This document shows, one piece after another, positions 12,776 through 30,821 of a stretch of DNA of 34,121 nucleotides. This stretch comes from an uncultured Roseibacillus sp. Lineage in GTDB: Bacteria > Verrucomicrobiota > Verrucomicrobiia > Verrucomicrobiales > Akkermansiaceae. How positions within the stretch are numbered: position 1 is the stretch's first letter; each line of letters begins with the position of its first letter. Position numbers and translations under genes: made by a program. The stretch covers positions 1-34,121 of the forward strand of contig CALFBF010000154.1 of the NCBI GenBank assembly GCA_937949965.1. The letters are read 5' to 3'. The notes beneath the pieces were generated by a model. The model saw only the letters and a list, made by a program, of their open reading frames with translations, ran no database searches and was not told the DNA's origin.

Positions 12776-12796
12776 CGTTCCAACTCACTCAAAAAT

Positions 12797-15020: not shown

Positions 15021-18000
15021 CTACTCGCTGAAGCTACCCGGCTCCTTACGAAAGGCATGGTAGTGTCCGAGATTTTGGTCCCATAGATAGACGTGCCAGA
15101 GGTAGGATCGATACACTAGGCGACAGTTCTCTCGAATGAAGAGCTCTTCACGAGCAGAGGGGTATTCCCATCGAAGATTACGTTTTCGGGAACGAAATTT
15201 TTCGCGATTGAGCAGAATCCACACTCGCTCATCTTCGGCAAAGATTTCTTGCAGTTGGCCGATGCGGTTAATCACTTTGGCATCGCCGTTGCGGTCGCGG
15301 AGGAGCCCCTCATCAGAGTAAGTGAAGTCGTAGAGAATGGGGACGACCAAATCGTAATCGACCTGGCCCAGCTCCATCTTGGCGGCATGAGGATGGGGTT
15401 CGGTGATCATGACTTTATCCTCATCGCGCATGTTCGCCTTCACATAGCGAAGCCCGGAGATAGGGTCTCCTAAAATCTTTTCCTGGTAAGAGCCCGGAAT
15501 GCGCCAAGGGCTCCAAGTCAGAAAGACGACGATTGCGGCGAGATTGCGGAGGAATCGGGCTCCTTGTGGATTTTGGGTCCATCTCCCGAGAAGCTCAAAT
15601 GCAACCCACATCCCATGGCAGCCTAACATAATCCAGAGTGCGATGAGGGTGTATTGGTAGCGGAAGCTGGGGGACGTGATGAGGAGATTGAGAAAAAGAA
15701 TCCCCGCCAAGAGGGCCACGTGAAGAGCGATGAGACGACGGAAACCCGTTCGTAAGGAGTAGGCCAAGCTTAAAAACCAAAACACGGATAAGGAAATGTG
15801 AAGCCGCGAATAGCCAATGAACATGGAGAAGAGATTGCCAAGTTCCCAGAAATTAGGCGAGATGGTGGCTTCGACATTGGGGGAAACTCCGACCGGGCGG
15901 GTCAGGCATTTCATCTGGAAGAGAAGGATATTGATCGCGACCGCTGCGGCAGTCACCCCGAGGGCGAGAATGGATTTGAGCTCCCAGCGCCATGGGACAT
16001 CACGACCAAAGAGAACGTAAAGTACGACGAGGATAGGAATAAAAGAGATCGAAATCTCTTGGCTCAAGACCGCGAGACCAAAGCAGAAGATGGCGAGAAC
16101 CCTCCACTTGGCACTCTTGCCAATGATGAAGCCTCGGATGAAAAAATCGATGAGGAGTAAGAGGAAGAGCTGTTGTTGCTGATAGAAGCGGGCGATGTGT
16201 CCGGTGAAGATGAGAAAGGGATGAATGGCAAAAAAGAAAGTCGCAATCGAAGCAACCCAACGACTGTGATAGTAGGTGCGAGCCATACGCCAGACGACCC
16301 ATGCAGTCACGAGCGAGGTGAGGACGGTAACCATCCTCAGCACCCATAAATTCGCGCCAAATAACCAAGCGGCCAAGCCTGCTAGGTAGTGATAAGCAGG
16401 GCTTCGACTGTACCAGATGTCTTTCCCAATTTCGGGAAGCCCAGTTTTCGCGATTGAGGTGACGGCTTGGATGGAGGCGTATTCATCATCGTCGATCGGT
16501 TGCTCAATCACACGATAGCCGCGGAGGACTAGGCAGAGAGCAAATAAGGAGGTGAGAATGACCCAGGAGGGAACCTGCCAGCGAGGAGTGATTTTTTTCC
16601 CGCGTAACAAAGCGAAGACCATTCCCGTTAGGAGGGCGAAGACAAGGTAAGTCCAAGCCCAACTTTCGGAGCGATACCAGAGCGATTCACTGCGCTCAAA
16701 AAGGGAGAACTTGATCACTAAGGAGAGGCTGAGAGTGATGAGAAAACCCAGTGCAAAGTGGTCTGCAAAAATCCATCGTCGCCGGATCAGCAGGAGACTG
16801 CCAAAAGCCAAAACTGCAGTCACGAAAGCGCTCCGTTTCCAGGAATGGGAAGTTCGTTGTTCTCCGATGTATTTCAGTCTGGGGAAGTGTGTTCCCGGTC
16901 GCGCAACCAGGGGGTTAGCTTGGAGTTCAAGAGTACGTCCCTGCCATTCACTGCGCCATTGGTTATCGGTGCGGAGGGGTTGGGTGTTCCCATCTTTGGT
17001 CAGGATTTCCCCGTCGAGCGCAATGGCTACCTGACGGCTGCGCCGATATCCGAGATTAGGTTCTTCCAGAACGCGTAGTCGAATCTGGTTTTTCCCTTTC
17101 TTGAGAACGGGCCCAATGCCGAAGCCGTGTAATTGTTCTCCACCCCGATCCCTCAGAACCTCGGGAGGGATTCGCCAGAAAGGCTCTTCTAACACTCCAT
17201 AGGGGTCATAGGTTGTCGCTTTGGGATCATCTGGGTCAGCACGGTCGTCGAGAAGTTCTCCCGCCGTCGTCGCGCGGTCGCGGTCCTTCGTGCGATTGAG
17301 GGTATTGCGGTAACGTTTGAAGTCGTTTTCGGTAGGGTCTCCGTGCCGTGGATTCTCGAAGCGATACCCGACCAATGCACTTGCGGTCTCATCGGGATCG
17401 AGAAGAGTGGGGAAGACTTCGAGGGGACGCCGTCCCATCCACTTGACCATCCAGCCGCCATCAGAGAGTCCTCTCGGTTCTCGCGAAGGGGGCTGAATGG
17501 CGACCTCATTGACGTAGAGCATGTAGGGTGCTCGGCTGGCTACCTTTACCCAAGCATCTTGGACCGCTTCTTCTTGATTCCATTCGTAGAGGAAGTCCTG
17601 TCCGGTAGATTCCCCATTACTGGCATCCAACTCGGTGGCCACCAACCATTCGCCGGTGAACTTTTGTTCGAACATCCCACGGGGCACAAAGGTAGTATGT
17701 GAACCCGAGAAGCGCCGCCCGACGATGGCGTGGTCCCAGTGGTCAATATTGGTGCCAGTTCGCACCCATTCCGCTTGCCCGATTTCCTTTGGGACGGGCT
17801 CAGCTTTCCAACTGGTATTCGAGTTGAGCGAAATGATCTCTCCATTTTCTAACTCGATTTCTCCCGTCAGCCGAAAGGCGACTCCTGCCCAACGAGCTTC
17901 CGTTTCGACCGAAATGGTATTGTCGCCAGGTTGTAAACTTTCTCGAATATCGAGAAAGGTAGGGACACGGTGATTTGCGTGCCCGGTCCATTGATACTCC

Positions 18001-18386
18001 CGTGGGAAGTTGTAGGCTACGGCGGGGTTACTGGTTACCACTCGCTGGCCGGATTCGGTGAGACCGTTTTGGAAGGGGCGTGTTGCTCGCCAGTAATCAG
18101 TTGCCCCCACGGTGTTTCCGTTGAGAGCGAGTTCCCAGCCGCCTTCGCATGCAATACAGAGCCAGGCATGGCGCACTTTTCCTGCTAGAAAAAAATCTTT
18201 GCGGAAGCAGCCAGTGCGCTGGTTTTCGTCTCGGACGCGAATCCATTGGCTATTACTAGGAAAATCGTAAATACGGCCGGGCGGCTCGGATGGGGCGATC
18301 GCGTTGCCTACCGTCCAGATGATCGCTCCTATCGCTAGTGCGATGAGTGCCGCAGACTTTAGCGATGTGAGAGCGTGCTTTTTCAT
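15021..18386 (-). CDS. GT39-like membrane glycosyltransferase with large N-terminal extracytoplasmic region
   Basis: A 1121-residue inner-membrane protein. Residues about 10-30 are a membrane helix. Residues 31-515 are predicted outside and contain beta-sandwich-like stretches (LCIACEGGWELALNGNTVG at 76-94; APYMLYVNEVAIQPP at 286-300; a third around 430-470) resembling jelly-roll modules at the front of rhamnosidases. Helices near 518-536, 543-562, 576-594 and 607-623 lead to an acidic D632-D-D-E635 loop, the usual place of the catalytic Asp/Glu in GT-C enzymes of the GT39/ArnT type, followed by many further helices. Residues about 1000-1121 are soluble. Such enzymes transfer sugar from a polyprenyl-phosphate donor to an acceptor outside the membrane. 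It is the last gene of the eight-gene group and lies 3 bases after its upstream neighbour. Substrate unknown. Confidence 0.82.
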   Translation of the reverse strand: MKKHALTSLKSAALIALAIGAIIWTVGNAIAPSEPPGRIYDFPSNSQWIRVRDENQRTGCFRKDFFLAGKVRHAWLCIACEGGWELALNGNTVGATDYWRATRPFQNGLTESGQRVVTSNPAVAYNFPREYQWTGHANHRVPTFLDIRESLQPGDNTISVETEARWAGVAFRLTGEIELENGEIISLNSNTSWKAEPVPKEIGQAEWVRTGTNIDHWDHAIVGRRFSGSHTTFVPRGMFEQKFTGEWLVATELDASNGESTGQDFLYEWNQEEAVQDAWVKVASRAPYMLYVNEVAIQPPSREPRGLSDGGWMVKWMGRRPLEVFPTLLDPDETASALVGYRFENPRHGDPTENDFKRYRNTLNRTKDRDRATTAGELLDDRADPDDPKATTYDPYGVLEEPFWRIPPEVLRDRGGEQLHGFGIGPVLKKGKNQIRLRVLEEPNLGYRRSRQVAIALDGEILTKDGNTQPLRTDNQWRSEWQGRTLELQANPLVARPGTHFPRLKYIGEQRTSHSWKRSAFVTAVLAFGSLLLIRRRWIFADHFALGFLITLSLSLVIKFSLFERSESLWYRSESWAWTYLVFALLTGMVFALLRGKKITPRWQVPSWVILTSLFALCLVLRGYRVIEQPIDDDEYASIQAVTSIAKTGLPEIGKDIWYSRSPAYHYLAGLAAWLFGANLWVLRMVTVLTSLVTAWVVWRMARTYYHSRWVASIATFFFAIHPFLIFTGHIARFYQQQQLFLLLLIDFFIRGFIIGKSAKWRVLAIFCFGLAVLSQEISISFIPILVVLYVLFGRDVPWRWELKSILALGVTAAAVAINILLFQMKCLTRPVGVSPNVEATISPNFWELGNLFSMFIGYSRLHISLSVFWFLSLAYSLRTGFRRLIALHVALLAGILFLNLLITSPSFRYQYTLIALWIMLGCHGMWVAFELLGRWTQNPQGARFLRNLAAIVVFLTWSPWRIPGSYQEKILGDPISGLRYVKANMRDEDKVMITEPHPHAAKMELGQVDYDLVVPILYDFTYSDEGLLRDRNGDAKVINRIGQLQEIFAEDERVWILLNREKFRSRKRNLRWEYPSAREELFIRENCRLVYRSYLWHVYLWDQNLGHYHAFRKEPGSFSE

Positions 18387-18389
18387 CTC

Positions 18390-19751
18390 TTAAAGCCCCT
18401 TTGATTCTCGGCGAGCTTCTGCCGCTGCTAGGGTGTTTCCGGCTTCCCATTCTCCTTGGGCGAGGATGAGCCATGAAGTGGCTAGGACGCCGCGTTTGTC
18501 TTTCCGCAAGTAGGGCTGATAGAGTTGTGCGATTTCCTCGCGACGACGGCGGTTATTTGCGAGATCTCCGATTTGTAAGCTGGTGAGTTGATGGTGGAAG
18601 CGAGCCTGGATAGCGACCGGTTCCAGTTCGCAAATCCTGCCAAACTGCTCGTATGCTTGCGGGAGGCGACCAGAGTTAAAGTCATCGATCGTGACCCTCA
18701 TCCAAGTCCGGGCCAGCTCTCGTTGCCATGCTCGCGGAAGATGCTCTCGTTCTCGATCCAGATCCGCGAGGCGCTCCTTGGCACGAGATCCGTATCCTTC
18801 GTTCTCGAGTTTCCAAACCTGATAGAGGATGGCACAAGGACTCTCTTGCGCAATGAGAGTTTCCATCCGACCTCGTTGTAGAATCAGGGTGGTGTCAAAG
18901 CTTAGCGCGGGCATCCATCGCTCGGCTTTATCGAGATGATCTAGGCAAGGTTGATACTTTCCTTGTAAAGCAGCAGCCTTCGCATTGCGGAGTTGGGAGC
19001 CAGCTTGCAGCACTGGCAATAGCGCTGAGCTTACCACTAGGAGGCTAGTACAGGCGAAGGCAATGGCCGCTGTTTTGAGGAGCTTACGGCGTCCTTTGTT
19101 TGCTCTTCCTTTTAATAACCCAAAGGCTCCCATCCCGAGCGCGGCAATCCCCAACCAGGCCATAAACCATCCCCGACCGACAAACTGGGAAAAGGCGGGA
19201 TTGAGCCCGAACCACCAGATGATTTCTGGAATTTCTTCAATTCCAAGAGTGGTTAGAGAATCCATCGGAGTTCTGAAGGCACCCAAAAAGATGGGTGGGT
19301 CCTGCATATTCACTCCCAGTTGAATGTCGTTGTAGCGCTCCGAATGTGCACGGTAAACGTCACCTCCCAGCCAGGTGAGATTATCGTGTTGCTGTTGTAG
19401 CCACGCTGCGTCGCCAGAGGTCTTTGCGTCTTGTACGGTGACCCATTGGGGATACCACCAGAGCAGGGGGAAGACGATCATTGACCAGATGAAGGTCCAA
19501 GCCAGATAGGAGTGAAAACTCCGAAAATTCCCTTTGGAAAAACCAACTCCAATGACCAAAATCCAGCCCAAGATCGCGGCGATGAGTCCTCCCTTAAAAA
19601 ATGAAGTGACCTCAGCGTCTCGGACCGTTGGCACGATGGTGCCTTCGCTTACTTCCCAGCCAGTTGGGAGTGTGAACCAGTCTTGAGAGAGGGATGCTGC
19701 CATGAGGAGCATTCCTGTTAGAAGAACGCCAAAAGCAGCCAGTCTAGCCAT
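18390..19751 (-). CDS. Membrane protein with helical (TPR-like) C-terminus, unknown function
   Basis: A 453-residue protein. About five hydrophobic helices lie in the first 250 residues (for example near 4-24, 52-70, 80-98, 195-215 and 228-248), with a Trp-rich loop (WLGGDVYRAHSERYNDIQ and following) probably outside. Residues 250-453 are soluble, helical and Arg/Glu/Leu-rich in a way that suggests TPR-like pairs (for example ALQGKYQPCLDHLDKAERW), so this part likely binds proteins. I do not recognise a named family. The start overlaps the HlyD-adaptor stop by 8 bases, and the GT39-like gene begins 3 bases after its end, so the three are surely co-translated and may form one complex. The function, perhaps scaffolding of the export or glycosylation machinery, is inference. 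Confidence 0.75.
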   Translation of the reverse strand: MARLAAFGVLLTGMLLMAASLSQDWFTLPTGWEVSEGTIVPTVRDAEVTSFFKGGLIAAILGWILVIGVGFSKGNFRSFHSYLAWTFIWSMIVFPLLWWYPQWVTVQDAKTSGDAAWLQQQHDNLTWLGGDVYRAHSERYNDIQLGVNMQDPPIFLGAFRTPMDSLTTLGIEEIPEIIWWFGLNPAFSQFVGRGWFMAWLGIAALGMGAFGLLKGRANKGRRKLLKTAAIAFACTSLLVVSSALLPVLQAGSQLRNAKAAALQGKYQPCLDHLDKAERWMPALSFDTTLILQRGRMETLIAQESPCAILYQVWKLENEGYGSRAKERLADLDREREHLPRAWQRELARTWMRVTIDDFNSGRLPQAYEQFGRICELEPVAIQARFHHQLTSLQIGDLANNRRRREEIAQLYQPYLRKDKRGVLATSWLILAQGEWEAGNTLAAAEARRESKGL

Positions 19752-21168
19752 GGCTTTGATAGTCGAATTCGCTCTCTTTGGTAATCTCGATTAGATCCCC
19801 TTCGCGGAGAATCCAATGTCCTGTGACGATGACTTTTTCATCTGGTTCAATCCCAGAGAGAATCTCAGCAGATTGATCGTCGACGATGCCTACTTTTACT
19901 TCACGTGCTTCCCAGCTCTGATCGGGGCCGGGAAGATAGACCACACCCGCGCCAGCAGAGATAGAGAGCAAGGCGGCTCTCGGAATTGCGATTCCTTTTC
20001 TTTTCACGGTGAGACGGCCAAATCCAGTCATTCCCATCGCAATGGGGAAGGTTTCCACTTTTTCGGTGAACTGTAAGCGAGCTCGGAAGGTTGCGGCCCA
20101 TTCCGGTGCTCCTGAACCACGCGGTCGTAGTGGTCGGGAAATTTCGGGACCACCCTCGTTGAAGCTGACCACTGGGGTGAGACGTTCCACAATTGCTGGC
20201 ATGGAGACTCCTGGATAAGCCTCAAGGCGGACTTCGCCTGTTTCGTCTTTTCTAACAAATCCGAAGTCAGCTTGATCGAAGAAGGCATCAAACCAGAGTC
20301 CGCTCACAATGACGAAGCCCGGCTTACCCGGGTCAGGATTGTATTCTCCTTCTTTGATGAGCACTCGCTCGATAATTCCGCTCGCGGGAGCACGGACGAG
20401 ATAGTTCTTAAGCTCAAGCTGCCGGTGGGCGACAGCCTCCTCGGCATCGCGCACGGCATTGCGTGCGATTTCTAGACTCTTGATCACTCCCTCCTCGGCC
20501 ATTCCCATTCGGAGCACGGCCTCGCTCAGTTGTTGTCCGGAATCCGCAAAGTCTTTCTCCGCATCTAACAGTGCAGTCTTGGCAACTAGACCTGCTTGGT
20601 AAGCCTTCCGCATACGGTCTACTTTTTCGGTGGCCAATTCGTACCGCTCTTTTTCTGCTGCCAGATTAACGCTCTCCATCTTGGGGCGTTCTTGGGCCAG
20701 GACATAGGCGGAGCCTGATTCGACCCGGGCCAGCTCGGCTTTAGCCGTTGCCACCGCCAGTTGAGCACTAGCCAGCTTAATGTCGGCAAACTCGTGGGAA
20801 AGCTCTGCCATGATCTCTCCTTTTCCGACGTAATCTCCTTCTTTGAAGTGAATCTTCTCGATGGATGATAAGGGAATCACGGGCACGAGAACGGGATCGC
20901 TGGAGCAGACTCCTTCTCCCATGACATATCTCGTAAACTCTCTCTCTCCGGCTTGGGCGGTGGTCACGGGGAGCGGTTTTCCCAAACGGCGCATCATCGC
21001 GGGATAGCCGAGATTAGAGGAATACATTTTCGTCGCCGGGCTTAGGTAGCTTGGCAGGAGGACGAAGTATCCCATTGTGATAATGAAAATTCCGAGGATA
21101 AGCCCACCAATCAGCAGGCCCTTATTGTCTCTAACAAGACCGGAAAGAATGGATAAACGGGAGCTCAT
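19744..21168 (-). CDS. HlyD/RND-type periplasmic adaptor (membrane fusion protein)
   Basis: A 474-residue adaptor protein. One N-terminal membrane helix (about 17-38) anchors it. A first lipoyl half (about 78-125, including IHFKEGDYVGKGEIMAELSH) leads into a long helical hairpin (about 125-255), then the second lipoyl half (LVRAPASGIIERVLIKEGEY), a beta-barrel part (SGLWFDAFFDQADFG) and a membrane-proximal domain (IPRAALLSISAGAGVVYLPG ... DEKVIVTGHWILREGDLIEI). Adaptors of this kind join an inner-membrane pump to an outer-membrane channel. No RND or ABC pump is in the window; the only candidate outer-membrane partner is the NodT-type gene at 31057, on the other strand. It overlaps the next gene by 8 bases. 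Its substrate could be a protein, glycan or small molecule. Confidence 0.88.
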   Translation of the reverse strand: MSSRLSILSGLVRDNKGLLIGGLILGIFIITMGYFVLLPSYLSPATKMYSSNLGYPAMMRRLGKPLPVTTAQAGEREFTRYVMGEGVCSSDPVLVPVIPLSSIEKIHFKEGDYVGKGEIMAELSHEFADIKLASAQLAVATAKAELARVESGSAYVLAQERPKMESVNLAAEKERYELATEKVDRMRKAYQAGLVAKTALLDAEKDFADSGQQLSEAVLRMGMAEEGVIKSLEIARNAVRDAEEAVAHRQLELKNYLVRAPASGIIERVLIKEGEYNPDPGKPGFVIVSGLWFDAFFDQADFGFVRKDETGEVRLEAYPGVSMPAIVERLTPVVSFNEGGPEISRPLRPRGSGAPEWAATFRARLQFTEKVETFPIAMGMTGFGRLTVKRKGIAIPRAALLSISAGAGVVYLPGPDQSWEAREVKVGIVDDQSAEILSGIEPDEKVIVTGHWILREGDLIEITKESEFDYQSHG

Positions 21169-21216
21169 GATCGGAGGGGGAAGTGCACTCTCACTGAGTA
21201 TAGTTTACCGATATAA

Positions 21217-22212
21217 TTACTTAATGTAAGTTGAATTGTTGCGGATTGTGTTCGCCTTTAGCTTGCACAAAAGATGGCTAAGGCTCAGTGCGGTGAGTTC
21301 GGCTGCGATTTGTAGGACGCGCCACAAAACGGCTACTGCCATGGCCTCTGGGATGCTCATGTGGGTAGAAAGAAAAAAAGTGATCCCTGCTTCTCGGACC
21401 CCGATTCCGCCAGGAACCCCGATAGCAAAGAATCCAATCAGCCAGGCGCTGCCATTTGTGGCGGCGGCGGAACCCCAATGATAGCTGCCGGGTTGTACTG
21501 CCTGCACAAGGAGCATTAACAATGCGGCGTGGGCGGCACAGAGAGCGAGGTAACTCCCCAAAGCACGTATGAGGGGAGAGAGGTGCCATTTCTGCATTTG
21601 GAGGGGTGCGAGTTTTCTCAAAATGATCCTCCGTATCGGAGGAGCTGCAAAGAGAATGCCCCCTCCGACTACTGCCATAGAGAGCACAGTCCAAGTTAAC
21701 CATGGCGTGGAGTTCTCTTCGCTAGTAGTGCTTAATTTTTGCTGAAGCTCATTGAGCAAGGAAGGATCTAACAAAAATCCGATGCCTGCAATGATCATCC
21801 ACGCGCCAATGGTGAGCAGAAGTTCTCCCACGAGGCTGGCTCCCGCAAGTGCTTTTGGGATGCCGATCTCTGGTGCTTTCACAATTCGAGAAGCATAGCC
21901 CCAAATCCCTCCTGGAAGCCACTTCAGGGCCTCAGACTGAATCCAGATGTGAGTTGCTTGGCTACGACTTCCTTGCCAACCGAGAGCCCTCAGGACATCG
22001 GCCCAGATCGAAGCATTCAGCACTGTGTAGAGGAGTAATCCAAACGCGACTAAGGCGAGAGAACCGGGATGTGCCGAGCTCGCGGCGGCGAGCACTGCGG
22101 GAAGGTTTTTGAATAAGGCAAAAAGCGGGATTCCAATCGCGCAGATGAGAAGGAGAGCTTTCCCAATGAGGAGCCCTTTGGAGCGGAGTGGTTTGTGTGC
22201 GGGCGTTGCCAT
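21217..22212 (-). CDS. LPG_synthase_TM / UPF0104 family membrane protein
   Basis: A 331-residue polytopic membrane protein with roughly seven or eight helices. I recognise the family by the late motif FAIGVPGGIGVREAGITFF, and by WADVLRALGW with ALKWLPGGIWGYASRI earlier. The family includes the flippase half of MprF and AglD-like proteins linked to polyprenyl-linked sugar metabolism. I chose the ATG at 22212 (MATPAHKPLRSKG); the longer frame to 22308 would overlap the end of the FG-GAP gene and adds a polar leader. It begins 10 bases after that gene ends and is followed after 48 bases by the HlyD adaptor. Flipping of lipid-linked sugar for the GT39-like enzyme is a plausible but unproven role. 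Confidence 0.82.
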   Translation of the reverse strand: MATPAHKPLRSKGLLIGKALLLICAIGIPLFALFKNLPAVLAAASSAHPGSLALVAFGLLLYTVLNASIWADVLRALGWQGSRSQATHIWIQSEALKWLPGGIWGYASRIVKAPEIGIPKALAGASLVGELLLTIGAWMIIAGIGFLLDPSLLNELQQKLSTTSEENSTPWLTWTVLSMAVVGGGILFAAPPIRRIILRKLAPLQMQKWHLSPLIRALGSYLALCAAHAALLMLLVQAVQPGSYHWGSAAATNGSAWLIGFFAIGVPGGIGVREAGITFFLSTHMSIPEAMAVAVLWRVLQIAAELTALSLSHLLCKLKANTIRNNSTYIK

Positions 22213-22222
22213 TGAGTGGGAT

Positions 22223-23626: not shown

Positions 23627-23638
23627 TAGGTGAGTCTG

Positions 23639-26600
23639 TTAGAAGTCTCCATTTTGCTCTCCGCTGTAGCCATCGACTCCGTCCCACTCGGTCGTCGGAT
23701 CGAGAGAGCCCTGATAGTATCCGCCGCCCCCGATGCTGTAAGCTTCCAGAGCAGGGGTGAATTGAATCCAGAGATCAGCGAAGTCTGAATCACTTGCGCT
23801 TTCATTTGGTCCTACTTCACTGCGGCTAATATCCTCCACCATGACGAGAGTGGAGTCCCCATCACTGAAGGTGAGATACTGGTCTTGAGTGCTAGGATTA
23901 GCATTAGTCATTGAGAAGAGAGGCTGTCTCCGAGTCTCATCACCGTTACCATGAGGGGTGTATCGATGGGGATTGTTAGTGAAACGATCGAACCGATTGT
24001 GTGGAAGAATTGCGAGCAAGACTTGCTTCCCCGCTAGACCAAGTGACTGAGGGTTAAAGGTCACTTGCGATCCTTCGACTACCGTTCTGTTGTCTAAGAG
24101 AGTCACCGCGTTCTCACCCGCGATAGCGCGGAACTGCAGAGTGCGGGGATCGACTTGGGCCATGATGTCATAGTCTACTAAAGCGAGGGTAAAGTCGAGT
24201 TTACTTCTATCTCCTAATAGCTCGATTGTTATTGGACCTGCGGTTGGTAACTTGAAAAAGTCTGCCGAGATTTCATAATCTGAATGATTCCAGCCGATAT
24301 CAGTTAGGACCTCACTCACTGCGGAAGAAGCCAAGCCTGAATCACCGAACTGCAAAGTAGCGGGTGCGGTGGGCACGATTTCTACCATGAAGATGACGTC
24401 GTTGAAGTCATTGTCTCGTCCCGCGAAGATTTGATCTTCAAAGGAAACAATAAGGGGGTTGTTAGAAATATTGATTTGGCTAGCGATCAACTCCAATCCT
24501 CCTGGGTTTAGATAAGAGTCTTGATGGATTTTGGTGATTCCTCCGCGCCCTCCATCTGCGACGAGGCCAAAACGGAGCTCGGTCTCGGCAGGTAGGATAC
24601 CAAGGCTGGCGGTCGAGCCAGGGATCAGTGGAGCAGTGGGTCCAGTGCCATATTTCTCCCAGAAAACAGTCCAACTACCGTTAGGATCGGCCGCATTATA
24701 CCACGCCACCGAGTTCACGTTCTTGGCTCCGTCATAGATGACGGTCACGAAGACTTCGGAGTCAGCTTCCAGGAAGAACCGCTCTTCGTCGAAGCCACGC
24801 TTCTCCTCCTCCAATGGGATTCCGTCAGTGTTGCAGTTTAGTTCATACTTCACTTCGTTCCAGATCTCGCGAGCATATTGGTAGTAGAGAGGATCGACCC
24901 CGTAGTTGCGAATCTGGGCCTCGCTGAGCTCGAACTCGATGATGTTGTCGTCCAAGTTGCACAGCGCGCAATCGTCTTCAAGAGTAGGGATACCGTCGCC
25001 ATCATCATCAATGTCGAGGAAGTTAGGGATGCCGTCGCCGTCTGAATCCAGAATGGTGCCGTTGTCGAGAATCTCGTCTGCATCGGCAACGCCATCGCTG
25101 TCGGTATCTGTATCGAGGTGGTTAGGGATGCCATCGCCGTCGAAGTCATCAGTGCCTTCATCACCATTCTTGATGCCATCGTTGTCTTGATCACGATCAT
25201 CGAAGTTATCGAGATAGTTCGCGATTAAGTCGCCATCGGTATCGCCCAATCCATCCACTCCGTCGAGCAAGCCGTCATTGTCGGCATCATTGTCGAGGAA
25301 GTTAGCTAAGCCGTCTTCATCAGCATCTCCGGTGAGCTCGACATCGTCAGTCAGGCCATCTCCGTCGGAGTCTTGATCAAGGTGGTTCGGGGTGCTGTCG
25401 CCGTCAACGTCGAAGACATCAGGTATGCCATCTCCATTACGATCAGTATAGTCGGTGATAGAGCGGTCGCCCTCGTCTCCGTTGTCGATGGTGTCGGTCC
25501 AGTTACGGATGCCATCTCCGTCTTCATCGCCATTGGGATTGCAGGTTCCTCCTTCGAATTCATCAGGGGTGCCGTCGTTATCGTCATCGGTATCGGCTTC
25601 GTCATCAATACCGTCACCATCACTATCGACGACGAGGATGGCTTTGGGGCAGATGGTACCATCATTGATGCCAGTCTTCGGAGCGTTGGCAACCCACGTG
25701 ACTTGGCCATTGCTGAGGTTGACCCGGAAGGCTCCTGTTCCTTTATTATCGAATCCATAAACGGTGCCATTGAAGTCGCAGATGAGCGCGCCAAAAGTCT
25801 TTCCGTTATTTCCTATGATCGTCGTATTTCCGTTTGTGAGATCGACTTTGAAGAAAGCTCCTCGGCTGGTAGAACCATACATATTCCCATCCACGGGGTT
25901 ATAAGCGAGGTCGATTTCGGCTCCGCTTGGGTTTGGGGAGTGAGCGTGGCTCCGCACTACGGCGAGGGTTTCGACATCAATTCCGTAAATGCGACCACCT
26001 CCAGAGACCCAGTAAAGACCATCTGCGGCGAAGGTTCCCGCGACATAGGAACGAGGAAGACCGTCGATCAATCCGACCTTCGCAACGCTCCCGTCTGAGC
26101 CGATGCGTAATAGCTCTGGCGTGTTCTGAGTACGATTGAGACCGTAGATGTAATCATCCGCAGGGTTGTAGCCAATGGCATTGTAGTTCAAGCCATGATC
26201 GGTGTTTCCAAGGTTAATGAATACTCCTTGGGTCACATCGACGAGTGCGAGCTGAGTATTCGCGTTGTAAGATTCGAGCGCATATCCCGAGCAAGGGAAG
26301 GCGGGCTGGTGATCGATGTAGTCTGGGGTGCCGTCGGCATCGGTATCGAGAAACCCTTCTACGGAATCGAGGAGACCGTCGTTGTCGGAATCGGGATCGA
26401 GATAGTTGGGGGTGCCGTCGTCGTCGCTATCGAGCGTTAATGATTCTTCTTCATTCCAGAGACCGTCGCCATCGGCGTCTTCTCCTGGCGCATCAGGGGT
26501 ACCATCATTATCAGAGTCACTATCCTCGTGGTCCGGGATGCCGTCACCGTCAAAGTCTCCGCTTCCTTCACGGTAGTCTTCGATCTGGTCGTTGTCGGAG

Positions 26601-28438
26601 TCGAGATCAACGAAGCCGGATTGTCCGTCGTTATCGAAGTCATTCCCACCATCGAGGCGGTCGGGAATGGTGTCGTTGTCCGAGTCGAGATCGAGGTAGT
26701 TAGGAAGCCCGTCGCCATCAAAGTCGGAAGCCCCCTCGAAAGAGTCGGCGAGGGTGTCGTTGTCCGAGTCCAAGTCGAGGAAGTTGGCCACGCCGTCACC
26801 ATCACTATCCGTGGTGAATGGAATGAACGAGATCTCATCTAGTCCAAAGGCCGTTTGTTGGACTGTCGTCTTCACACTGTGGATGGAGAGGGTGACTTGC
26901 GTGTCTTCTCCGTTCACGAAGGTGGCGTAGGTCCGGCTCCATTCTCCGAGTTCGCCCCCCACAACAGGGACGCCGAGGGAGACCCCATTGACTCGGAAGT
27001 CAAGTGCAGGCTCTCGATTGGTGAGCGCGCTTGCGACTGCGGCCGAGAAGACGTAGGTCATTCCCGGTTCCACGGTTGTCTCTTGGCTCCAGACTCGCTC
27101 ACCAGTCGTTGGTCCGGTCCAGATAACGAGCATCTTTCCGCCCCCGCTATAGTCACCGAAGGAGGCGAAATTTGCAGTGACGTCAGAAGGATCTTCCGCG
27201 ATTTCGAAGGCGCCTTCGGGTTGAGCTACTCCGTCATCAAGCTCACTGAGAGTTTGAGAATAACTGGTGGAGAATGCGTCCTTTCCGCTGGAGAAGTCAC
27301 CATTGATCACGAGCTCGCCTTGGCCTCCAAGGGCGAAGGCTTCGCGGTTGTTAGGAATGCCATCGCCGTCAGCATCCTTATCAACTCCATCCGGGATGCC
27401 ATCTTCATCTGAGTCGGAGTCTAGGAAGTTAGCGAGGCCATCACCGTCGTTGTCTGTGATTCCTTCCACGGAGTCTCTGAGCCCGTCATTGTCTGAATCG
27501 TTATCTTGGTAGTTGGCTAATCCATCTTCATCGGCATCATCAAGGCCTTCGCGTTCATCGCTGAGACCATCGTTATCACTATCAGGATCGAGGTAGTTTG
27601 GGAGGGCGTCTCCATCCCGATTTGCGGTTCCTTCGATGGCGTCGAGAAGTCCATCATCATCGCTATCAAGGTCTCGGTAGTTGGCCAGTCCGTCACGATC
27701 AGAGTCCTCCGCACCCTCGATTCTATCAGGGATGCCGTCGTTATCGGAATCCAGATCTTCGAGGTCAGGAGTTCCATCCCCGTCGGTGTCTGGAGTGACA
27801 TTGAGGTAGGTGCCGGCGGCGATGAGGTAGCATTCCACTCCGCTGATGCCTTTCCAGAACTCACTTCGGATCTCGATATGAGAGAGATCACTGAGCACGC
27901 GCAGTAGCTTGTCCTCGCTGGTGTCAAAACTCTCAGGCTCTATCGAGATGGAGTATTGGCAAACTTCGCCGAAGGCAGAGGGAGAGAGTTGGTGTTGCAT
28001 CACTCCGTGGCGCAAATCAATATTCACTTCGATTCCCGAGTTTGAAACGAAAGCAAGGTCGCGCGTAGTAGTTGTCGCCCACTCCAGATCCAGTGCTTTA
28101 GTGAGAATCCCGAAGTGAAATGTTTGGCCGTAGGCGGAAGAGAGATCGCCAGTCCACTTACTAAGCCGGAAGTATCCGAAGCCTGAGGTGTCGTCATGGA
28201 AGGAGACGGCGGTAAGACCTTGCACTGTTTCTGAAGCTAGCTGGCCGCCACGGCCTGTGAGCTGAGCGGTTGTGAGGTCAAGATCGGCAGTCTCGAGGAT
28301 GAGATCACCAGCGGCAAAGGCCGCGACGTCAGACTCGATTACGTCTGTTAGGTAATCTCCGTCAAGATCGTTGGCGGAGAGATTCGCCCCCCAGAGGTAA
28401 AGGGGGGAGAGAAAGACCCATTGTGAGAGAGTTTTCAT
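23639..28438 (-). CDS. Giant TSP3-repeat / DUF4114 calcium-binding surface protein
   Basis: A 1599-residue exported protein with a signal peptide (MKTLSQWVFLSPLYLWGANL). In order: a beta-rich N-domain (about 22-212); a TSP3 block of D.D.DG-type repeats (213-364); a carbohydrate-binding-like beta-sandwich (about 368-535, from GELVINGDFSSGKDAFSTSY); a second TSP3 block (543-709); a DUF6923-like propeller region (about 713-930, with NYNAIGYNPADDYIYGLNR); a third TSP3 block (937-1155); a DUF4114 domain (about 1160-1355, ending SFEDQIFAGRDNDFNDVIF); and a second, weaker DUF4114-like end near the C-terminus (VMVEDISRS ... DSDFADLWIQF). TSP3 repeats bind many Ca2+ ions. No PEP-CTERM or LPXTG anchor is seen; the C-terminus ends in a Gly/Tyr/Asp-rich tail. 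Probably an adhesin or matrix protein. It follows two glycosyltransferase genes. Confidence 0.9.
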   Translation of the reverse strand: MKTLSQWVFLSPLYLWGANLSANDLDGDYLTDVIESDVAAFAAGDLILETADLDLTTAQLTGRGGQLASETVQGLTAVSFHDDTSGFGYFRLSKWTGDLSSAYGQTFHFGILTKALDLEWATTTTRDLAFVSNSGIEVNIDLRHGVMQHQLSPSAFGEVCQYSISIEPESFDTSEDKLLRVLSDLSHIEIRSEFWKGISGVECYLIAAGTYLNVTPDTDGDGTPDLEDLDSDNDGIPDRIEGAEDSDRDGLANYRDLDSDDDGLLDAIEGTANRDGDALPNYLDPDSDNDGLSDEREGLDDADEDGLANYQDNDSDNDGLRDSVEGITDNDGDGLANFLDSDSDEDGIPDGVDKDADGDGIPNNREAFALGGQGELVINGDFSSGKDAFSTSYSQTLSELDDGVAQPEGAFEIAEDPSDVTANFASFGDYSGGGKMLVIWTGPTTGERVWSQETTVEPGMTYVFSAAVASALTNREPALDFRVNGVSLGVPVVGGELGEWSRTYATFVNGEDTQVTLSIHSVKTTVQQTAFGLDEISFIPFTTDSDGDGVANFLDLDSDNDTLADSFEGASDFDGDGLPNYLDLDSDNDTIPDRLDGGNDFDNDGQSGFVDLDSDNDQIEDYREGSGDFDGDGIPDHEDSDSDNDGTPDAPGEDADGDGLWNEEESLTLDSDDDGTPNYLDPDSDNDGLLDSVEGFLDTDADGTPDYIDHQPAFPCSGYALESYNANTQLALVDVTQGVFINLGNTDHGLNYNAIGYNPADDYIYGLNRTQNTPELLRIGSDGSVAKVGLIDGLPRSYVAGTFAADGLYWVSGGGRIYGIDVETLAVVRSHAHSPNPSGAEIDLAYNPVDGNMYGSTSRGAFFKVDLTNGNTTIIGNNGKTFGALICDFNGTVYGFDNKGTGAFRVNLSNGQVTWVANAPKTGINDGTICPKAILVVDSDGDGIDDEADTDDDNDGTPDEFEGGTCNPNGDEDGDGIRNWTDTIDNGDEGDRSITDYTDRNGDGIPDVFDVDGDSTPNHLDQDSDGDGLTDDVELTGDADEDGLANFLDNDADNDGLLDGVDGLGDTDGDLIANYLDNFDDRDQDNDGIKNGDEGTDDFDGDGIPNHLDTDTDSDGVADADEILDNGTILDSDGDGIPNFLDIDDDGDGIPTLEDDCALCNLDDNIIEFELSEAQIRNYGVDPLYYQYAREIWNEVKYELNCNTDGIPLEEEKRGFDEERFFLEADSEVFVTVIYDGAKNVNSVAWYNAADPNGSWTVFWEKYGTGPTAPLIPGSTASLGILPAETELRFGLVADGGRGGITKIHQDSYLNPGGLELIASQINISNNPLIVSFEDQIFAGRDNDFNDVIFMVEIVPTAPATLQFGDSGLASSAVSEVLTDIGWNHSDYEISADFFKLPTAGPITIELLGDRSKLDFTLALVDYDIMAQVDPRTLQFRAIAGENAVTLLDNRTVVEGSQVTFNPQSLGLAGKQVLLAILPHNRFDRFTNNPHRYTPHGNGDETRRQPLFSMTNANPSTQDQYLTFSDGDSTLVMVEDISRSEVGPNESASDSDFADLWIQFTPALEAYSIGGGGYYQGSLDPTTEWDGVDGYSGEQNGDF
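24971..25627 (-). repeat. TSP3 repeat block C (in-gene)
   Basis: Third Asp-rich block, more irregular than A and B and containing a few Cys residues (GGTCNPNGDEDGDG; DDCALC at its end). Boundaries are approximate. Confidence 0.75.
26311..26809 (-). repeat. TSP3 repeat block B (in-gene)
   Basis: Second Asp-rich block, with units such as DSDNDTLADSFEG and DFDGDGLPNYLD. Boundaries are approximate. Confidence 0.75.
27340..27790 (-). repeat. TSP3 repeat block A (in-gene)
   Basis: About six units of roughly 75 bases coding for DSDNDGLxDxxEG / DxDGLANYxD patterns. Asp codons vary between GAC and GAT, so the DNA repeat is imperfect. Boundaries are approximate. Confidence 0.75.
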
Positions 28439-28470
28439 AAGATTAAGGAGTTGGAGGTTAGTAGGGGCTG

Positions 28471-29712
28471 TTAGAATGTTTGCGGAATCACGTTTGTGAT
28501 GACTTCAGGTTCACCCTGATAGACATTCAGCGTGAGGCGGGCGCAGCGGTCCCAGTCGAAAAGAGTCTTGGCATGTTGATGCCCGCGACTACCCAGTTCG
28601 GTGGCAAGGCTGGGATTATTGAGAACGCGTAACACGGCTTCCGAGAGGGCTTTTGGATCTTTCTCTGGGACCAGAAGTCCGGTCTCATTATCGATGATGA
28701 CATCAACGATTCCACCGACCCTAGAAGCGACTACGGGCTTGCAGTTAGCAAGGGCCTCAATGAGGACGACACCCAATCCCTCGGTGTCTCCCTTATCATC
28801 ATAGATAGCGGGGTGGACGTAGAGATCGCACTTCTGATAGAGCCGCCCCAATTCTTCGTTGGAAACGAATCCTGCGAATCTAACAGATTTCTCTAAGCCT
28901 AGTTCTTGGGCCAGTTCTTGCCATTCTGCTTTGCGATCACCTTCACCGGTAATGACCAGATCGACATCGCGTTGGCGCAAGATTTCGGGCATGGCTTTGA
29001 GAAGGACATCGATGCCTTTGCGCTGAATGAGGCGTCCGCAGAATAAGAGTAGAGGTTTCTCGTTTTTCTCCTGTTTAGCTTCCGCTTGGTCGGACACGGT
29101 TGCTCCGTAGGGCACGACCCGGGCCTCGACTCCGCAGAGCCTTTTGACTTCAGCCTTGGTATGGGAGCTGTTAGCACAGACCTCGTCTGATTGCTTTAAG
29201 AAGAAGGTGAGGAGGTGACGGATGAGGGAATTATTACGAGCGAGAGCGAGCTCGGCACCGTGGCACATGGAGACCACGCGCACTCCAAGGAGCCACTTGG
29301 GAAGCAGCGCCCACAGACCATGGGGGAAAGGCCAATGGATATGGAGTACGCGTGTTCCATCCTGTATACACCACTTCAGTACAGAAAGAACGCCAGAGAG
29401 AAGATAAGGAATGGTCAAAAGCTGGAACCAAATGGAACGCACCTTACTCGGAGCACCGGCATCGTGGGTGAGGCATTCCAGTTGTGCGGGAGCATAGCGG
29501 ATTCTTCTCACAGAGATGCCGTCGATTGAGTGGCTCTTGATTCCGTGACAACCTGCCGCGTAGATTTTCAAGCTATCGAGGGAGCCGACCGTCCGGCTCG
29601 CCATTTCGCGCATCCACGGGACTTGATGATCATCTTGGAAGCGTGCGTAGGTCGAGGTCACGACCGCGACGCGTTGCTCGGTGTGAGCGTGAATTGAGGA
29701 TGATTTTTTCAT
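28471..29712 (-). CDS. GT4-family glycosyltransferase
   Basis: A 413-residue retaining glycosyltransferase of the GT-B fold, probably cytoplasmic or membrane-peripheral. The C-terminal Rossmann domain starts near 218 with FCGRLIQRKGIDVLLKAMPE (donor-phosphate R227/K232), followed by VITGEGD, FAGFVSNEELGRLY, and the E311-x7-E319 donor motif in DTEGLGVVLIEALANCKPVV. An N-terminal acceptor domain has VLHIHWPFPHG and SMCHGAEL. Such enzymes move a sugar from a nucleotide donor onto a lipid-linked or polysaccharide acceptor. It is the second gene of the eight-gene group, 27 bases after the GT2 gene and 32 bases before the TSP3 protein gene. Sugar and acceptor are not predictable from the sequence. 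Confidence 0.92.
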   Translation of the reverse strand: MKKSSSIHAHTEQRVAVVTSTYARFQDDHQVPWMREMASRTVGSLDSLKIYAAGCHGIKSHSIDGISVRRIRYAPAQLECLTHDAGAPSKVRSIWFQLLTIPYLLSGVLSVLKWCIQDGTRVLHIHWPFPHGLWALLPKWLLGVRVVSMCHGAELALARNNSLIRHLLTFFLKQSDEVCANSSHTKAEVKRLCGVEARVVPYGATVSDQAEAKQEKNEKPLLLFCGRLIQRKGIDVLLKAMPEILRQRDVDLVITGEGDRKAEWQELAQELGLEKSVRFAGFVSNEELGRLYQKCDLYVHPAIYDDKGDTEGLGVVLIEALANCKPVVASRVGGIVDVIIDNETGLLVPEKDPKALSEAVLRVLNNPSLATELGSRGHQHAKTLFDWDRCARLTLNVYQGEPEVITNVIPQTF

Positions 29713-29739
29713 GACTTTAAAGAGGTGAGAGTTGGGAAC

Positions 29740-30747
29740 TTAGGCGGCTAAGGTGACTGATTTCTCAGTTTGGTTACTGCGGACGAAGGGAGGCTGATGC
29801 TCACAGGAATCCGCCACTGGGACTTCATGATGTTCTTGCATGGTTTTGAAAACCTGGTGCTCGAGTTGGAGCCCCATGCCGATCGAGATCACGGCGGTCA
29901 TGAAAGACATCATCCCCATCGATGCGAGGAAGGTGCCGATGCTGATTCCTGCCAATGAGCAGGCGAGTCCGGCAACAAGCAAGAGACTGCCCACTACTCC
30001 GGAGATTAAGGCGATACGACCGAAGAAGTGGAGCGGACGATCGCGGTAGGTCTTCAGGAAGCTGATGGTGGTCATATCGAACAAGCCACAAAGGATGCGC
30101 TTCACTCCATACTTGCTCACTCCGAATTGACGGGGGTGATGTTGAACGACGAGCTCCGCAGTTTCATAACCTTCGAAAGAGGCCAGAGAAGGAACCATGC
30201 GGTGCATCTCGCCATACATCGGGATCTTTTCGATCACCTCACGGCGGTAGCACTTGAAGCCACAGTTGTGATCGTGGAGCTCCACTCCAACCAACTTGCT
30301 CAAGACGGCATTGAAGACTCGGCTGGGGAGGACCTTGTGCCAAGGATCGTAGCGCTTCTTTTTGTAACCGGTAACGATGCCATACCCTTCCTGAATCTTG
30401 TTCAAGAAGCGGGGAATCTCGGTGGGATCGTCCTGCAAATCGGCATCCATCGTGAAGACGACATCTCCAGTAGCTTGTTCATACCCGAGAGAGAGCGCAT
30501 CGGCTTTCCCCATATTCCGGCGGAAGCGGAAGGCGCGGACCTGATCGGGGTGAGCTTCTGCCAACCGGCTCATTTCCTGCCAGGTCCGATCTGTGCTGCC
30601 ATCATCAATGAAAAGCACCTCGTAGTTCAGCCCAAGCTGTTTCATTTGGGTAGCGAGGCCCTTATGGAGAATGGCAAGAGTCTCTTCCTCATTCATGGCT
30701 GGAATGATGAAGGAGACGGATTTGATAGTGATGTTTTCGAGTTTCAT
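29740..30747 (-). CDS. GT2 polyprenyl-phosphate glycosyltransferase (DPM1-like)
   Basis: A 335-residue family-2 glycosyltransferase with two C-terminal membrane helices (about 243-265 and 270-293). The GT-A core has SFIIPAMNEEETL (12-24), FIDDGSTDRTW (46-56), and the metal-binding DADLQDDPTE (101-110). The C-terminal hairpin places it with the dolichol/undecaprenyl-phosphate mannose or glucose synthases (DPM1/GtrB type) rather than with processive synthases. It would load one sugar onto undecaprenyl phosphate in the cytoplasmic leaflet. First gene of the eight-gene reverse group that ends with a GT39-like enzyme, which would use exactly such a donor. The ATG has no Shine-Dalgarno sequence. 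A 309-base divergent region lies to its right. Confidence 0.9.
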   Translation of the reverse strand: MKLENITIKSVSFIIPAMNEEETLAILHKGLATQMKQLGLNYEVLFIDDGSTDRTWQEMSRLAEAHPDQVRAFRFRRNMGKADALSLGYEQATGDVVFTMDADLQDDPTEIPRFLNKIQEGYGIVTGYKKKRYDPWHKVLPSRVFNAVLSKLVGVELHDHNCGFKCYRREVIEKIPMYGEMHRMVPSLASFEGYETAELVVQHHPRQFGVSKYGVKRILCGLFDMTTISFLKTYRDRPLHFFGRIALISGVVGSLLLVAGLACSLAGISIGTFLASMGMMSFMTAVISIGMGLQLEHQVFKTMQEHHEVPVADSCEHQPPFVRSNQTEKSVTLAA

Positions 30748-30821
30748 GATTTCTTGGCTTTATCTGATTTCTTTAATCACTCCACGTGCCAACTCGAATC
30801 AACCAATTCGTAACTCGCTTA

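What the first reader, a model, noticed from the sequence alone, without database searches (positions are those of the whole stretch)
15021..30747. Eight-gene reverse-strand locus: candidate surface-protein glycosylation and display system
Eight genes run in one direction with gaps of 27, 32, 12, 10 and 48 bases, one 8-base overlap and one 3-base gap, so a single transcript is likely. The order is a polyprenyl-P sugar synthase (GT2), a GT4 enzyme, a giant TSP3/DUF4114 protein, an FG-GAP propeller protein, an LPG_TM-family membrane protein, an HlyD adaptor, a helical-tailed membrane protein and a GT39-like transferase. GT2 plus GT39 is the pair needed for protein O-glycosylation from a polyprenyl-P donor, and two exported proteins sit between them as natural substrates. 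I know of no named system with this composition. The gene order and motifs are seen; the joint function is inferred.
Basis: partly seen in the sequence, partly recalled or inferred. Interest (0 to 1): 0.75.

Follow-up and report, generated by a model that had tools for sequence, protein, structure and literature searches.

The report
Nitric-oxide-linked surface glycan assembly cluster
A set of neighbouring genes kept together in two bacterial phyla looks like a machine that builds a sugar coat outside the inner membrane and passes it to the cell surface, under the control of a likely nitric oxide sensor, and the tail of the sticky surface protein beside it was found at full length only in genomes that carry this machine.

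Summary
The eight reverse-strand genes are real, with the stated spacing, but belong to a larger unit. Relatives of the terminal GT39 enzyme were found in 36 loci of Verrucomicrobiota and Planctomycetota. HlyD, the TPR-tailed membrane protein P7 and GT39 follow in this order in all 32 loci that reach upstream of GT39, with one extra gene between HlyD and P7 in two. Among 78 relatives H-NOX occurs in 13 of 14 cluster genomes and 7 of 64 others. Upstream of GT2, 11 of 19 loci (window included) have a sigma-54-like site, shuffle mean 0.53; the window's own site is imperfect. GT2 is closest to ArnC; the GT39 core resembles ArnT and carries lectin-like domains. No pump family matched more than one of 89 neighbours. 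The giant protein's DUF4114 domain occurs in 10 of 14 cluster genomes, 0 of 64 others above 100 bits. Best reading: an H-NOX/sigma-54-controlled periplasmic glycan assembly and export machine with dedicated adhesins. Protein O-glycosylation remains a rival. Function is inferred.

The parts
29740..30747 (-). GT2, polyprenyl-phosphate sugar synthase (ArnC/GtrB-like) with two C-terminal membrane helices; first gene of the run
   Evidence: Pfam Glycos_transf_2 5e-32; ArnC structures E 5e-47, sll0501 (GtrB, name recalled) 2e-28; hydropathy segments at 245-263 and 273-291
30776..30791 (-). sigma-54-like -24/-12 site TGGCACGTGGAGTGAT, 44 bases upstream of GT2
   Evidence: sequence. The -24 half is canonical, the -12 half is degenerate, and it does not meet the strict pattern
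28471..29712 (-). GT4 glycosyltransferase
   Evidence: Pfam Glycos_transf_1 1e-47; found in 19 of 36 loci
23639..28438 (-). giant surface protein with Asp-rich (TSP3-like) repeats, DUF6923 and a C-terminal DUF4114 domain
   Evidence: C-terminal domain at full length only in cluster genomes of the sets searched
23642..24991 (-). C-terminal 450-residue DUF4114 domain (CTD)
22223..23626 (-). FG-GAP beta-propeller protein; genus-level accessory
   Evidence: Pfam FG-GAP_2 2e-83; relatives in the searched loci only in G002 and G003
21217..22212 (-). LPG_synthase_TM family membrane protein, candidate flippase
   Evidence: Pfam 6e-11; 25 of 36 loci
19744..21168 (-). HlyD/RND-type periplasmic adaptor
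   Evidence: 32 of 36 loci, all that reach upstream of GT39
18390..19751 (-). P7: membrane protein with C-terminal TPR domain, conserved WLQQQHDxxTWLGGD loop
   Evidence: no Pfam family; AlphaFold pLDDT 91.9; best fold matches are TPR proteins; 32 of 36 loci
15021..18386 (-). GT39/GT83-like GT-C transferase with about 500 residues of N-terminal lectin-like domains and DDDE motif
   Evidence: PMT_2 7e-12; core like ArnT TM 0.62-0.63 by target, N-terminus like lectin and GH78 domains at low TM; invariant D632-E635
31057..32529 (+). OEP/NodT-type outer-membrane channel, divergent from GT2
   Evidence: Pfam OEP 3e-36; outer_NodT 258.6 bits over cutoff 210; 14 of 36 loci
11041..11361 (-). HPt phosphotransfer protein
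   Evidence: Pfam Hpt 2e-10; HPt model hits in 17 of 36 loci, one of them (L092) inside a kinase frame
11420..12775 (+). NtrC-type sigma-54 response regulator
   Evidence: Sigma54_activat 9e-67, Response_reg 2e-27
12797..13339 (+). H-NOX haem-NO-binding sensor
   Evidence: HNOB 6e-38; closest solved H-NOX 6ocv E 6e-42, with the IHVEV-KLYP and YxSxR stretches aligned
13340..15007 (+). PAS hybrid histidine kinase
   Evidence: HisKA, HATPase_c, Response_reg, PAS

Best explanation
The locus encodes an H-NOX/sigma-54-controlled machine that assembles a glycan on the periplasmic face of the inner membrane and delivers it to the cell surface. Step 1 (inferred from family): GT2 charges a polyprenyl phosphate with a sugar. 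Step 2 (inferred): the LPG_synthase_TM protein brings the lipid-linked sugar across, with GT4 acting on the cytoplasmic side. Step 3 (fold shown by prediction, reaction inferred): the ArnT-like GT-C enzyme transfers the sugar onto an acceptor held by its lectin-like domains. Step 4 (linkage shown, contact inferred): P7, by its TPR domain, and the HlyD adaptor couple the enzyme to a TolC-like channel, so the product leaves without an ABC, RND or MFS pump. Step 5 (gene linkage and promoter-like sites shown, signalling inferred): H-NOX, the hybrid kinase, HPt and the NtrC-type regulator switch the run on or off at a sigma-54 promoter before GT2. In part of the Verrucomicrobiota, surface proteins with a shared C-terminal DUF4114 domain and varied other domains are the dedicated partners, most likely held at the surface by the glycan.
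For: HlyD, P7 and GT39 occur in this order in 32 of 32 loci that reach upstream of GT39, in two phyla (one gene intervenes between HlyD and P7 in L063 and L078), mostly with short gaps or overlaps. GT2, GT4 and LPG_synthase_TM are found in 20, 19 and 25 of 36 loci, many of them cut by contig ends. GT2 is closest to ArnC; the GT39 core is closest to ArnT and its N-terminus to lectins and GH78 domains. No pump family matches more than one of 89 neighbour proteins scanned (ACR_tran one). H-NOX: 13 of 14 cluster genomes against 7 of 64 others (p 4e-9), beside cluster genes in 10 of the 12 genomes whose H-NOX surroundings were seen. Sigma-54-like sites before GT2 in 11 of 19 loci, window included; shuffle mean 0.53, maximum 4 of 200 rounds; 11 of 19 GT2 regions against 11 of 131 other genes. 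RpoN is present in the own genome. DUF4114 CTD: 10 of 14 against 0 of 64 above 100 bits (p 8e-10). In a 288-genome phylum sample it is above 400 bits in the same 4 genomes as P7. Precedents, read as passages: HnoX, HahK, Hpt, SypG and syp polysaccharide (PMC12369376); DUF4114 as a Ca-dependent sugar-binding domain (PMC9109919); GT-C enzymes with carbohydrate-binding modules (PMC11127046).
Against: No initiating phosphoglycosyltransferase, polymerase of known type or Wza-like porin was found among the window genes scanned, and the acceptor is unknown. OEP is absent from the fetched Planctomycetota stretches. A pump encoded elsewhere is not excluded, and families matching a single neighbour were not all listed. 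Roseibacillus persicicus (G001) has no GT4 or LPG_synthase_TM in its locus. H-NOX was not found in 7 of 37 cluster genomes, some incomplete, and stands apart from the core in G008 and G026. The window's own -12 element is degenerate, and the strict sigma-54 pattern is not enriched in the window (2 against 2.05 expected, neither before a gene of the unit's start). Eight of 19 GT2 regions score below 10. Genomes are related, so the Fisher values overstate independence. The sigma-54 matrix was recalled, not fetched.
Confidence: 0.55

Rival explanations
1. Protein O-glycosylation and display: GT2 makes the donor, GT39 glycosylates the exported DUF4114-domain proteins, and HlyD with OEP moves them from periplasm to surface, with the DUF4114 domain as the recognition signal.
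For: The CTD is found above 100 bits only in cluster genomes of the sets searched, is beside cluster or H-NOX genes in 8 of 10 of them, and is joined to varied other domains (DUF6923, PA14, PKD, pAdhesive_15, Laminin_B), the pattern of a shared C-terminal signal. PMT_2 is the Pfam match of GT39.
Against: 24 of 37 cluster genomes, including all those named as Planctomycetota, lack the full-length CTD, so the machine seems to work without it. Lectin-like domains on GT39 point to a glycan acceptor. OEP channels of this kind usually pass unfolded or small cargo (recalled).
Confidence: 0.27
2. Lipid A or glycolipid modification: an ArnC/ArnT-like pair decorates a lipid, and HlyD with OEP delivers the glycolipid to the outer membrane.
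For: GT2 is closest to ArnC and the GT39 core to ArnT; an adaptor without a pump could carry a lipid.
Against: ArnT has no 500-residue lectin-like N-terminus (recalled). The link to DUF4114 adhesins and to a syp-like control cascade is not explained.
Confidence: 0.1
3. An ordinary RND-type efflux adaptor and outer-membrane factor that happen to lie beside glycosylation genes, serving a pump elsewhere.
For: The HlyD protein matches RND adaptors and the channel matches outer_NodT over its cutoff.
Against: HlyD, P7 and GT39 stay together in 32 of 32 loci across two phyla, and no pump family matches more than one of 89 neighbours.
Confidence: 0.04

Closest known systems
Three-component extracytoplasmic glycosylation systems (GtrB/GtrA/Gtr; ORF12 of GT136 in Citrobacter; mycobacterial Emb/Aft)
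   Same: Donor synthase on polyprenyl phosphate, candidate flippase, GT-C transferase; a carbohydrate-binding module on the GT-C enzyme as in GT136 and Emb (PMC11127046, passages)
   Different: Flippase of another family (LPG_synthase_TM); the transferase is locked to P7 and an HlyD adaptor; own outer-membrane channel; H-NOX/sigma-54 control
Vibrio fischeri syp polysaccharide locus with HnoX-HahK-SypF/LuxU-SypG
   Same: NO sensor, hybrid kinase, HPt and sigma-54 response regulator controlling a polysaccharide locus (PMC12369376, passages)
   Different: Control genes lie beside the biosynthetic genes; the biosynthetic genes differ, with no Wzx/Wzy/Wza set found among the genes scanned
XcsAB-TolC model of cyanobacterial cellulose export
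   Same: Membrane glycosyltransferase, HlyD-like adaptor and TolC with no classical pump; proposed and not proven (PMC12430437, passages)
   Different: The enzyme here is GT-C, presumably with a lipid donor, not a BcsA-type GT2 synthase; enzyme and adaptor genes lie together
ArnC/ArnT pair
   Same: Nearest solved relatives of GT2 and of the GT39 membrane core
   Different: Lectin-like domains, no other arn-type gene among the window genes scanned, different partners
SecA_DEAD-HlyD-Peptidase_M50 module of PVC bacteria
   Same: HlyD-domain proteins in Planctomycetes and Verrucomicrobia, sometimes with OEP (PMC4452313, passages)
   Different: No SecA or M50 family among window genes or among families matching two or more neighbours; glycosyltransferases instead

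Membership tests
Three-component periplasmic glycosylation system | Polyprenyl-phosphate sugar synthase of GT2 type with membrane helices | tested here: met
   (family and helices; activity not tested)
Three-component periplasmic glycosylation system | Dedicated flippase (GtrA/SMR or MATE type) | tested here: inconclusive
   The only candidate is LPG_synthase_TM; activity is not testable here
Three-component periplasmic glycosylation system | GT-C fold transferase | tested here: met
   Model pLDDT 78; ArnT 5F15/5EZM E about 1e-9, TM 0.62-0.63 by target, 0.33 by query
syp-type H-NOX-controlled polysaccharide locus | H-NOX, hybrid kinase, HPt and sigma-54 regulator linked to the glycan genes | tested here: met
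syp-type H-NOX-controlled polysaccharide locus | Wzx/Wzy/Wza-type polysaccharide assembly genes | tested here: not met
   None among the 18 window proteins scanned nor among families matching two or more of 89 neighbours; the rest of the genome was not searched
Tripartite efflux or type I secretion | Energised inner-membrane pump (ABC, RND or MFS) encoded with the adaptor | tested here: not met
   None among the 18 window proteins scanned; no such family matches more than one of 89 neighbour proteins, ACR_tran one
Tripartite efflux or type I secretion | Adaptor plus outer-membrane factor | tested here: met
   OEP in 14 of 36 loci
PEP-CTERM/exosortase system | PrsR-type regulator at equivalog level and an exosortase | tested here: not met
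   TIGR02915 402.4 bits, cutoff 502.6; no exosortase among the eight proteins scanned; genome not searched
XcsAB-TolC cellulose type | BcsA-like cellulose synthase | tested here: not met
   GT2 is ArnC/GtrB-like
Protein O-mannosylation (PMT) | Transfer of sugar to Ser/Thr of exported protein | not testable with these tools
   Pfam PMT_2 hit only

The most novel reading that the evidence does not exclude
HlyD, P7 and GT-C form a new class of trans-envelope glycan machine: a lipid-donor GT-C enzyme with its own lectin domains polymerises or extends a glycan in the periplasm, and the growing product itself, not a pump, is pushed through an adaptor and TolC-like channel. The machine is gated by an H-NOX sensor through a complete phosphorelay and a sigma-54 promoter, and in Verrucomicrobiota the DUF4114 domain is a dedicated C-terminal module that fixes varied adhesins to that glycan.
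Probability: 0.33. Interest if true: 0.82.

Novelty: new variant of a known kind. Interest (0 to 1): 0.63.

Why it matters
Verrucomicrobiota and Planctomycetota are common surface-living bacteria whose glycan and adhesin systems are little known. A GT-C enzyme tied to an HlyD adaptor and an outer-membrane channel without a pump would test the open idea, so far only modelled for cyanobacterial cellulose, that a synthase can feed an HlyD-TolC conduit directly. The linked H-NOX phosphorelay would make gas-controlled surface coating testable in cultured strains (Roseibacillus, Haloferula, Rubritalea). The DUF4114 domain gives a defined substrate or partner to assay.

Tried and rejected
Rejected: (1) the eight genes as the whole unit: OEP, HPt, NtrC-type, H-NOX and kinase genes recur. 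(2) FG-GAP as a core part: in the searched loci only in G000, G002 and G003. (3) A PEP-CTERM/PrsR system: the regulator is below the PrsR cutoff. (4) The SecA-HlyD module of PVC bacteria. (5) A sigma-54 site at 11328-11342 before the NtrC-type gene: the pattern was written one base too short between its halves, so its 6 matches (1.88 expected) mean nothing; with the right spacing there are 2 in the window, 2.05 expected, and none before GT2 or the regulator. The matrix gives only 3.1 before the regulator.

Led nowhere: sigma-70 promoter and terminator scans (4 found against 9.9 expected, 17 against 14.5). The profile of P7 against solved structures gave only weak matches to TPR proteins and to unrelated chains including a toxin family, taken as chance and not followed. 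Pfam found nothing in the extra 203-residue protein of G003. The two H-NOX loci of cluster-negative genomes that were opened (G016, G033; 2 of 7) show no HlyD, P7 or GT39.

Rows dropped before counts: 20 of 78 genomes had a match at E 1e-3; I count as cluster genomes only the 14 above 690 bits, and the six weak ones (G015, G022, G034, G037, G064, G070) as without. In one search, G063 and G069 (42-44 bits) are counted as without, six genomes with 45-60 bits over part of the domain (G027, G112, G204, G244, G279, G287) likewise, two with 26-40 bits (G359, G361). In one search, 8 of 12 matches were weak partial matches; the 4 of 530 bits or more are counted, the own genome among them. In one search a short GT2 piece of L067, which one search had included, was left out and the window added. 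The 89 neighbours were limited to 200-1300 residues within 7 kb before and 6 kb after the core. The genomes behind loci L062-L097 overlap those, so searches are not independent. The models were built from members found in the same loci.
Full report
WHAT IS THERE. The window is one contig (C154) of a draft genome of 2.73 Mb. The eight minus-strand genes exist at the stated places with the stated gaps. The flanks hold an OEP outer-membrane channel diverging from GT2 (31057-32529) and, converging on GT39, an NtrC-type regulator, an H-NOX protein and a hybrid kinase (11420-15007). An HPt protein lies opposite the regulator (11041-11361).

IT IS CONSERVED. Among 78 genomes (own included), 14 have the GT39 protein above 690 bits and 13 have P7; the two are adjacent in all 13. 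The fourteenth, G028, is cut inside GT39. A scan of named genomes gave 36 loci from Verrucomicrobiota (among them Haloferula rosea, Roseibacillus persicicus, R. ishigakijimensis and Rubritalea profundi) and Planctomycetota (Pirellulaceae, Schlesneria, Isosphaeraceae and others; phyla checked for four names). One, L088, is recorded only as uncultured bacterium. With family models on all 36 loci: GT39 36, P7 32, HlyD 32, LPG_synthase_TM 25, GT2 20, GT4 19, HPt 17 (one inside a kinase frame), NtrC-type 17, OEP 14, H-NOX 12. The four loci without P7 and HlyD begin inside GT39. Many other absences are contig ends. By estimated starts, P7 and GT39 overlap or lie within 68 bases in 32 of 32 cases, and HlyD and P7 within 49 in 29 of 31; in L063 and L078 one gene lies between HlyD and P7. 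The unit is sporadic: P7 in 4 of 288 genomes drawn from the phylum (own included) and 3 of 294 of Planctomycetota, the centre genome included.

CONTROL GENES. H-NOX occurs in 13 of 14 cluster genomes and 7 of 64 others (Fisher 4e-9, with the caveat of relatedness). In 10 of the 12 cluster genomes whose H-NOX surroundings were seen it sits beside cluster genes (G000, G001, G002, G003, G011, G024, G028, G031, G035 and G062); in G062 these are a second GT2, GT4 and LPG_synthase_TM set, and in G028 an OEP piece at a contig end. In G008 and G026 it stands apart from the core. In G065 it was not looked at. Two of the seven cluster-negative H-NOX genomes (G016, G033) were opened and show none of HlyD, P7 and GT39. 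H-NOX is found in 30 of 37 cluster genomes over both phyla, some matches partial. The window's H-NOX aligns over 164 residues with a solved H-NOX (6ocv), including the IHVEV-KLYP and YxSxR stretches; that these hold the haem is recalled.

SIGMA-54. Upstream of GT2 a sigma-54-like site scoring 10 or more occurs in 11 of 19 loci, window included, against 0.53 on average and 4 at most in 200 rounds of a home-made dinucleotide-keeping shuffle. In the earlier run, without the window and with one short GT2 piece, it was also 11 of 19, against 11 of 131 other genes (Fisher 2e-6). In the window it is TGGCACGTGGAGTGAT, 44 bases before the start codon, with a weak -12 half. The strict pattern is not enriched in the window, so the case rests on the comparison. 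RpoN is encoded elsewhere in the genome. The matrix was recalled.

THE MACHINE. GT2 is closest to ArnC (E 5e-47) and then to sll0501. The GT39 model (pLDDT 78, residues 302-415 unreliable) has a membrane core like ArnT (E about 1e-9, TM 0.62-0.63 by target, 0.33 by query), followed by oligosaccharyltransferases and AftA. Its N-terminal half gives the best E-values, to GH78 rhamnosidases and a fungal lectin (3e-12 to 1e-6), but at low TM (0.41 or less), so the match is of single beta-domains. The DDDE motif is invariant in 33 sequences. P7 (pLDDT 91.9) has five long helices in its first 262 residues, four of them marked by hydropathy, a conserved loop WLQQQHDxxTWLGGD and a TPR tail; the best fold matches are TPR proteins. 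By the positive-inside rule, applied by eye, the loop and tail are periplasmic. No pump family matches more than one of 89 neighbour proteins (ACR_tran one; single matches were not all listed). OEP lies with Verrucomicrobiota loci and not in the fetched Planctomycetota stretches.

THE SURFACE PROTEIN. The C-terminal 450 residues of the giant protein match above 100 bits in 10 of 14 cluster genomes and 0 of 64 others; two others have weak 42-44 bit matches (Fisher 8e-10). In 8 of the 10 it lies beside cluster or H-NOX genes; in G001 it is elsewhere, and in G030 the contigs are too short to tell. In the 288-genome sample the full-length domain is above 400 bits in exactly the four genomes that have P7, and six others have partial matches of 45-60 bits. 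Of 37 cluster genomes, 13 have it at full length or nearly so: 12 of Verrucomicrobiota, the window counted, and L088. None named as Planctomycetota has it; two have 26-40 bit partial matches. The proteins carry different other domains: DUF6923, PA14, PKD, pAdhesive_15, Laminin_B and Asp-rich repeats. G001 and G002 hold two such genes and G003 three. FG-GAP is found only in G000, G002 and G003 among the searched loci.

READING. What is shown: a linked, conserved set, its families, two predicted folds, promoter-like sites and two co-occurrence patterns. What is inferred: that it builds and exports a glycan, that H-NOX governs it, and that DUF4114 proteins bind or receive that glycan. Passages of four papers support the analogies: syp control by HnoX, HahK, Hpt and SypG, where HnoX inhibits the kinase (PMC12369376); DUF4114 as a calcium-dependent sugar-binding domain proposed to bind EPS (PMC9109919); three-component glycosylation with a carbohydrate-binding module on the GT-C enzyme (PMC11127046); and the unproven XcsAB-TolC model (PMC12430437). 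The machine exists without the full-length DUF4114 domain in 24 of 37 cluster genomes (some incomplete), so I rank glycan assembly above protein glycosylation; the dependence in the other direction keeps the rival alive.

NOVELTY. In the listings of ten paper searches I saw no paper on this gene set. They cover open-licence papers only, and I saw titles, abstract starts and passages, not whole texts. It works like a three-component glycosylation system under syp-like control. By the tests above it is not a member of the efflux, exosortase, cellulose or SecA-HlyD kinds.

Noticed in passing
window 1576-3258 (+): One open frame of 560 residues joins a ribose-5-phosphate isomerase B domain (LacAB_rpiB) and a serine hydroxymethyltransferase: a fusion of two enzymes.
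   Followed up: no
L111 13367-19600 (G062 C22): A second set of DUF4114 protein, GT2, GT4 and LPG_synthase_TM lies beside H-NOX and kinase on another contig of a genome that already has the cluster.
   Followed up: partly
L075 77-1165, L077 196-1287, L076 13413-13931, L081 13637-14113, L085 13264-14079, L086 8819-9340: In Planctomycetota, proteins that read as response regulators, some with an HDOD domain, recur beside the cluster.
   Followed up: partly
L075 13375-20490 (-): A 2372-residue protein with SdrD_B and SpaA-like domains lies directly after GT39 in a Planctomycetaceae locus without the full-length DUF4114 domain; possibly the local surface partner.
   Followed up: no
P0006 residues 339-361 and relatives in A5: The adaptor family has a nearly invariant stretch GGPEINRPxRPRGTGSPEWAATF; it might mark a docking surface for P7 or GT39.
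   Followed up: no
L106 10322-11941 (G003): An extra GT2 paralogue and a 203-residue protein without any Pfam match sit between OEP and GT2.
   Followed up: no
L107 1-5773 (G002 C129): Two genes related to the giant protein flank a second GT2 in one run, suggesting duplication of adhesin and donor-synthase genes.
   Followed up: no
L063 1840-2625 and L078 7073-7945: One gene is inserted between HlyD and P7 in each of these two loci, on opposite strands.
   Followed up: no
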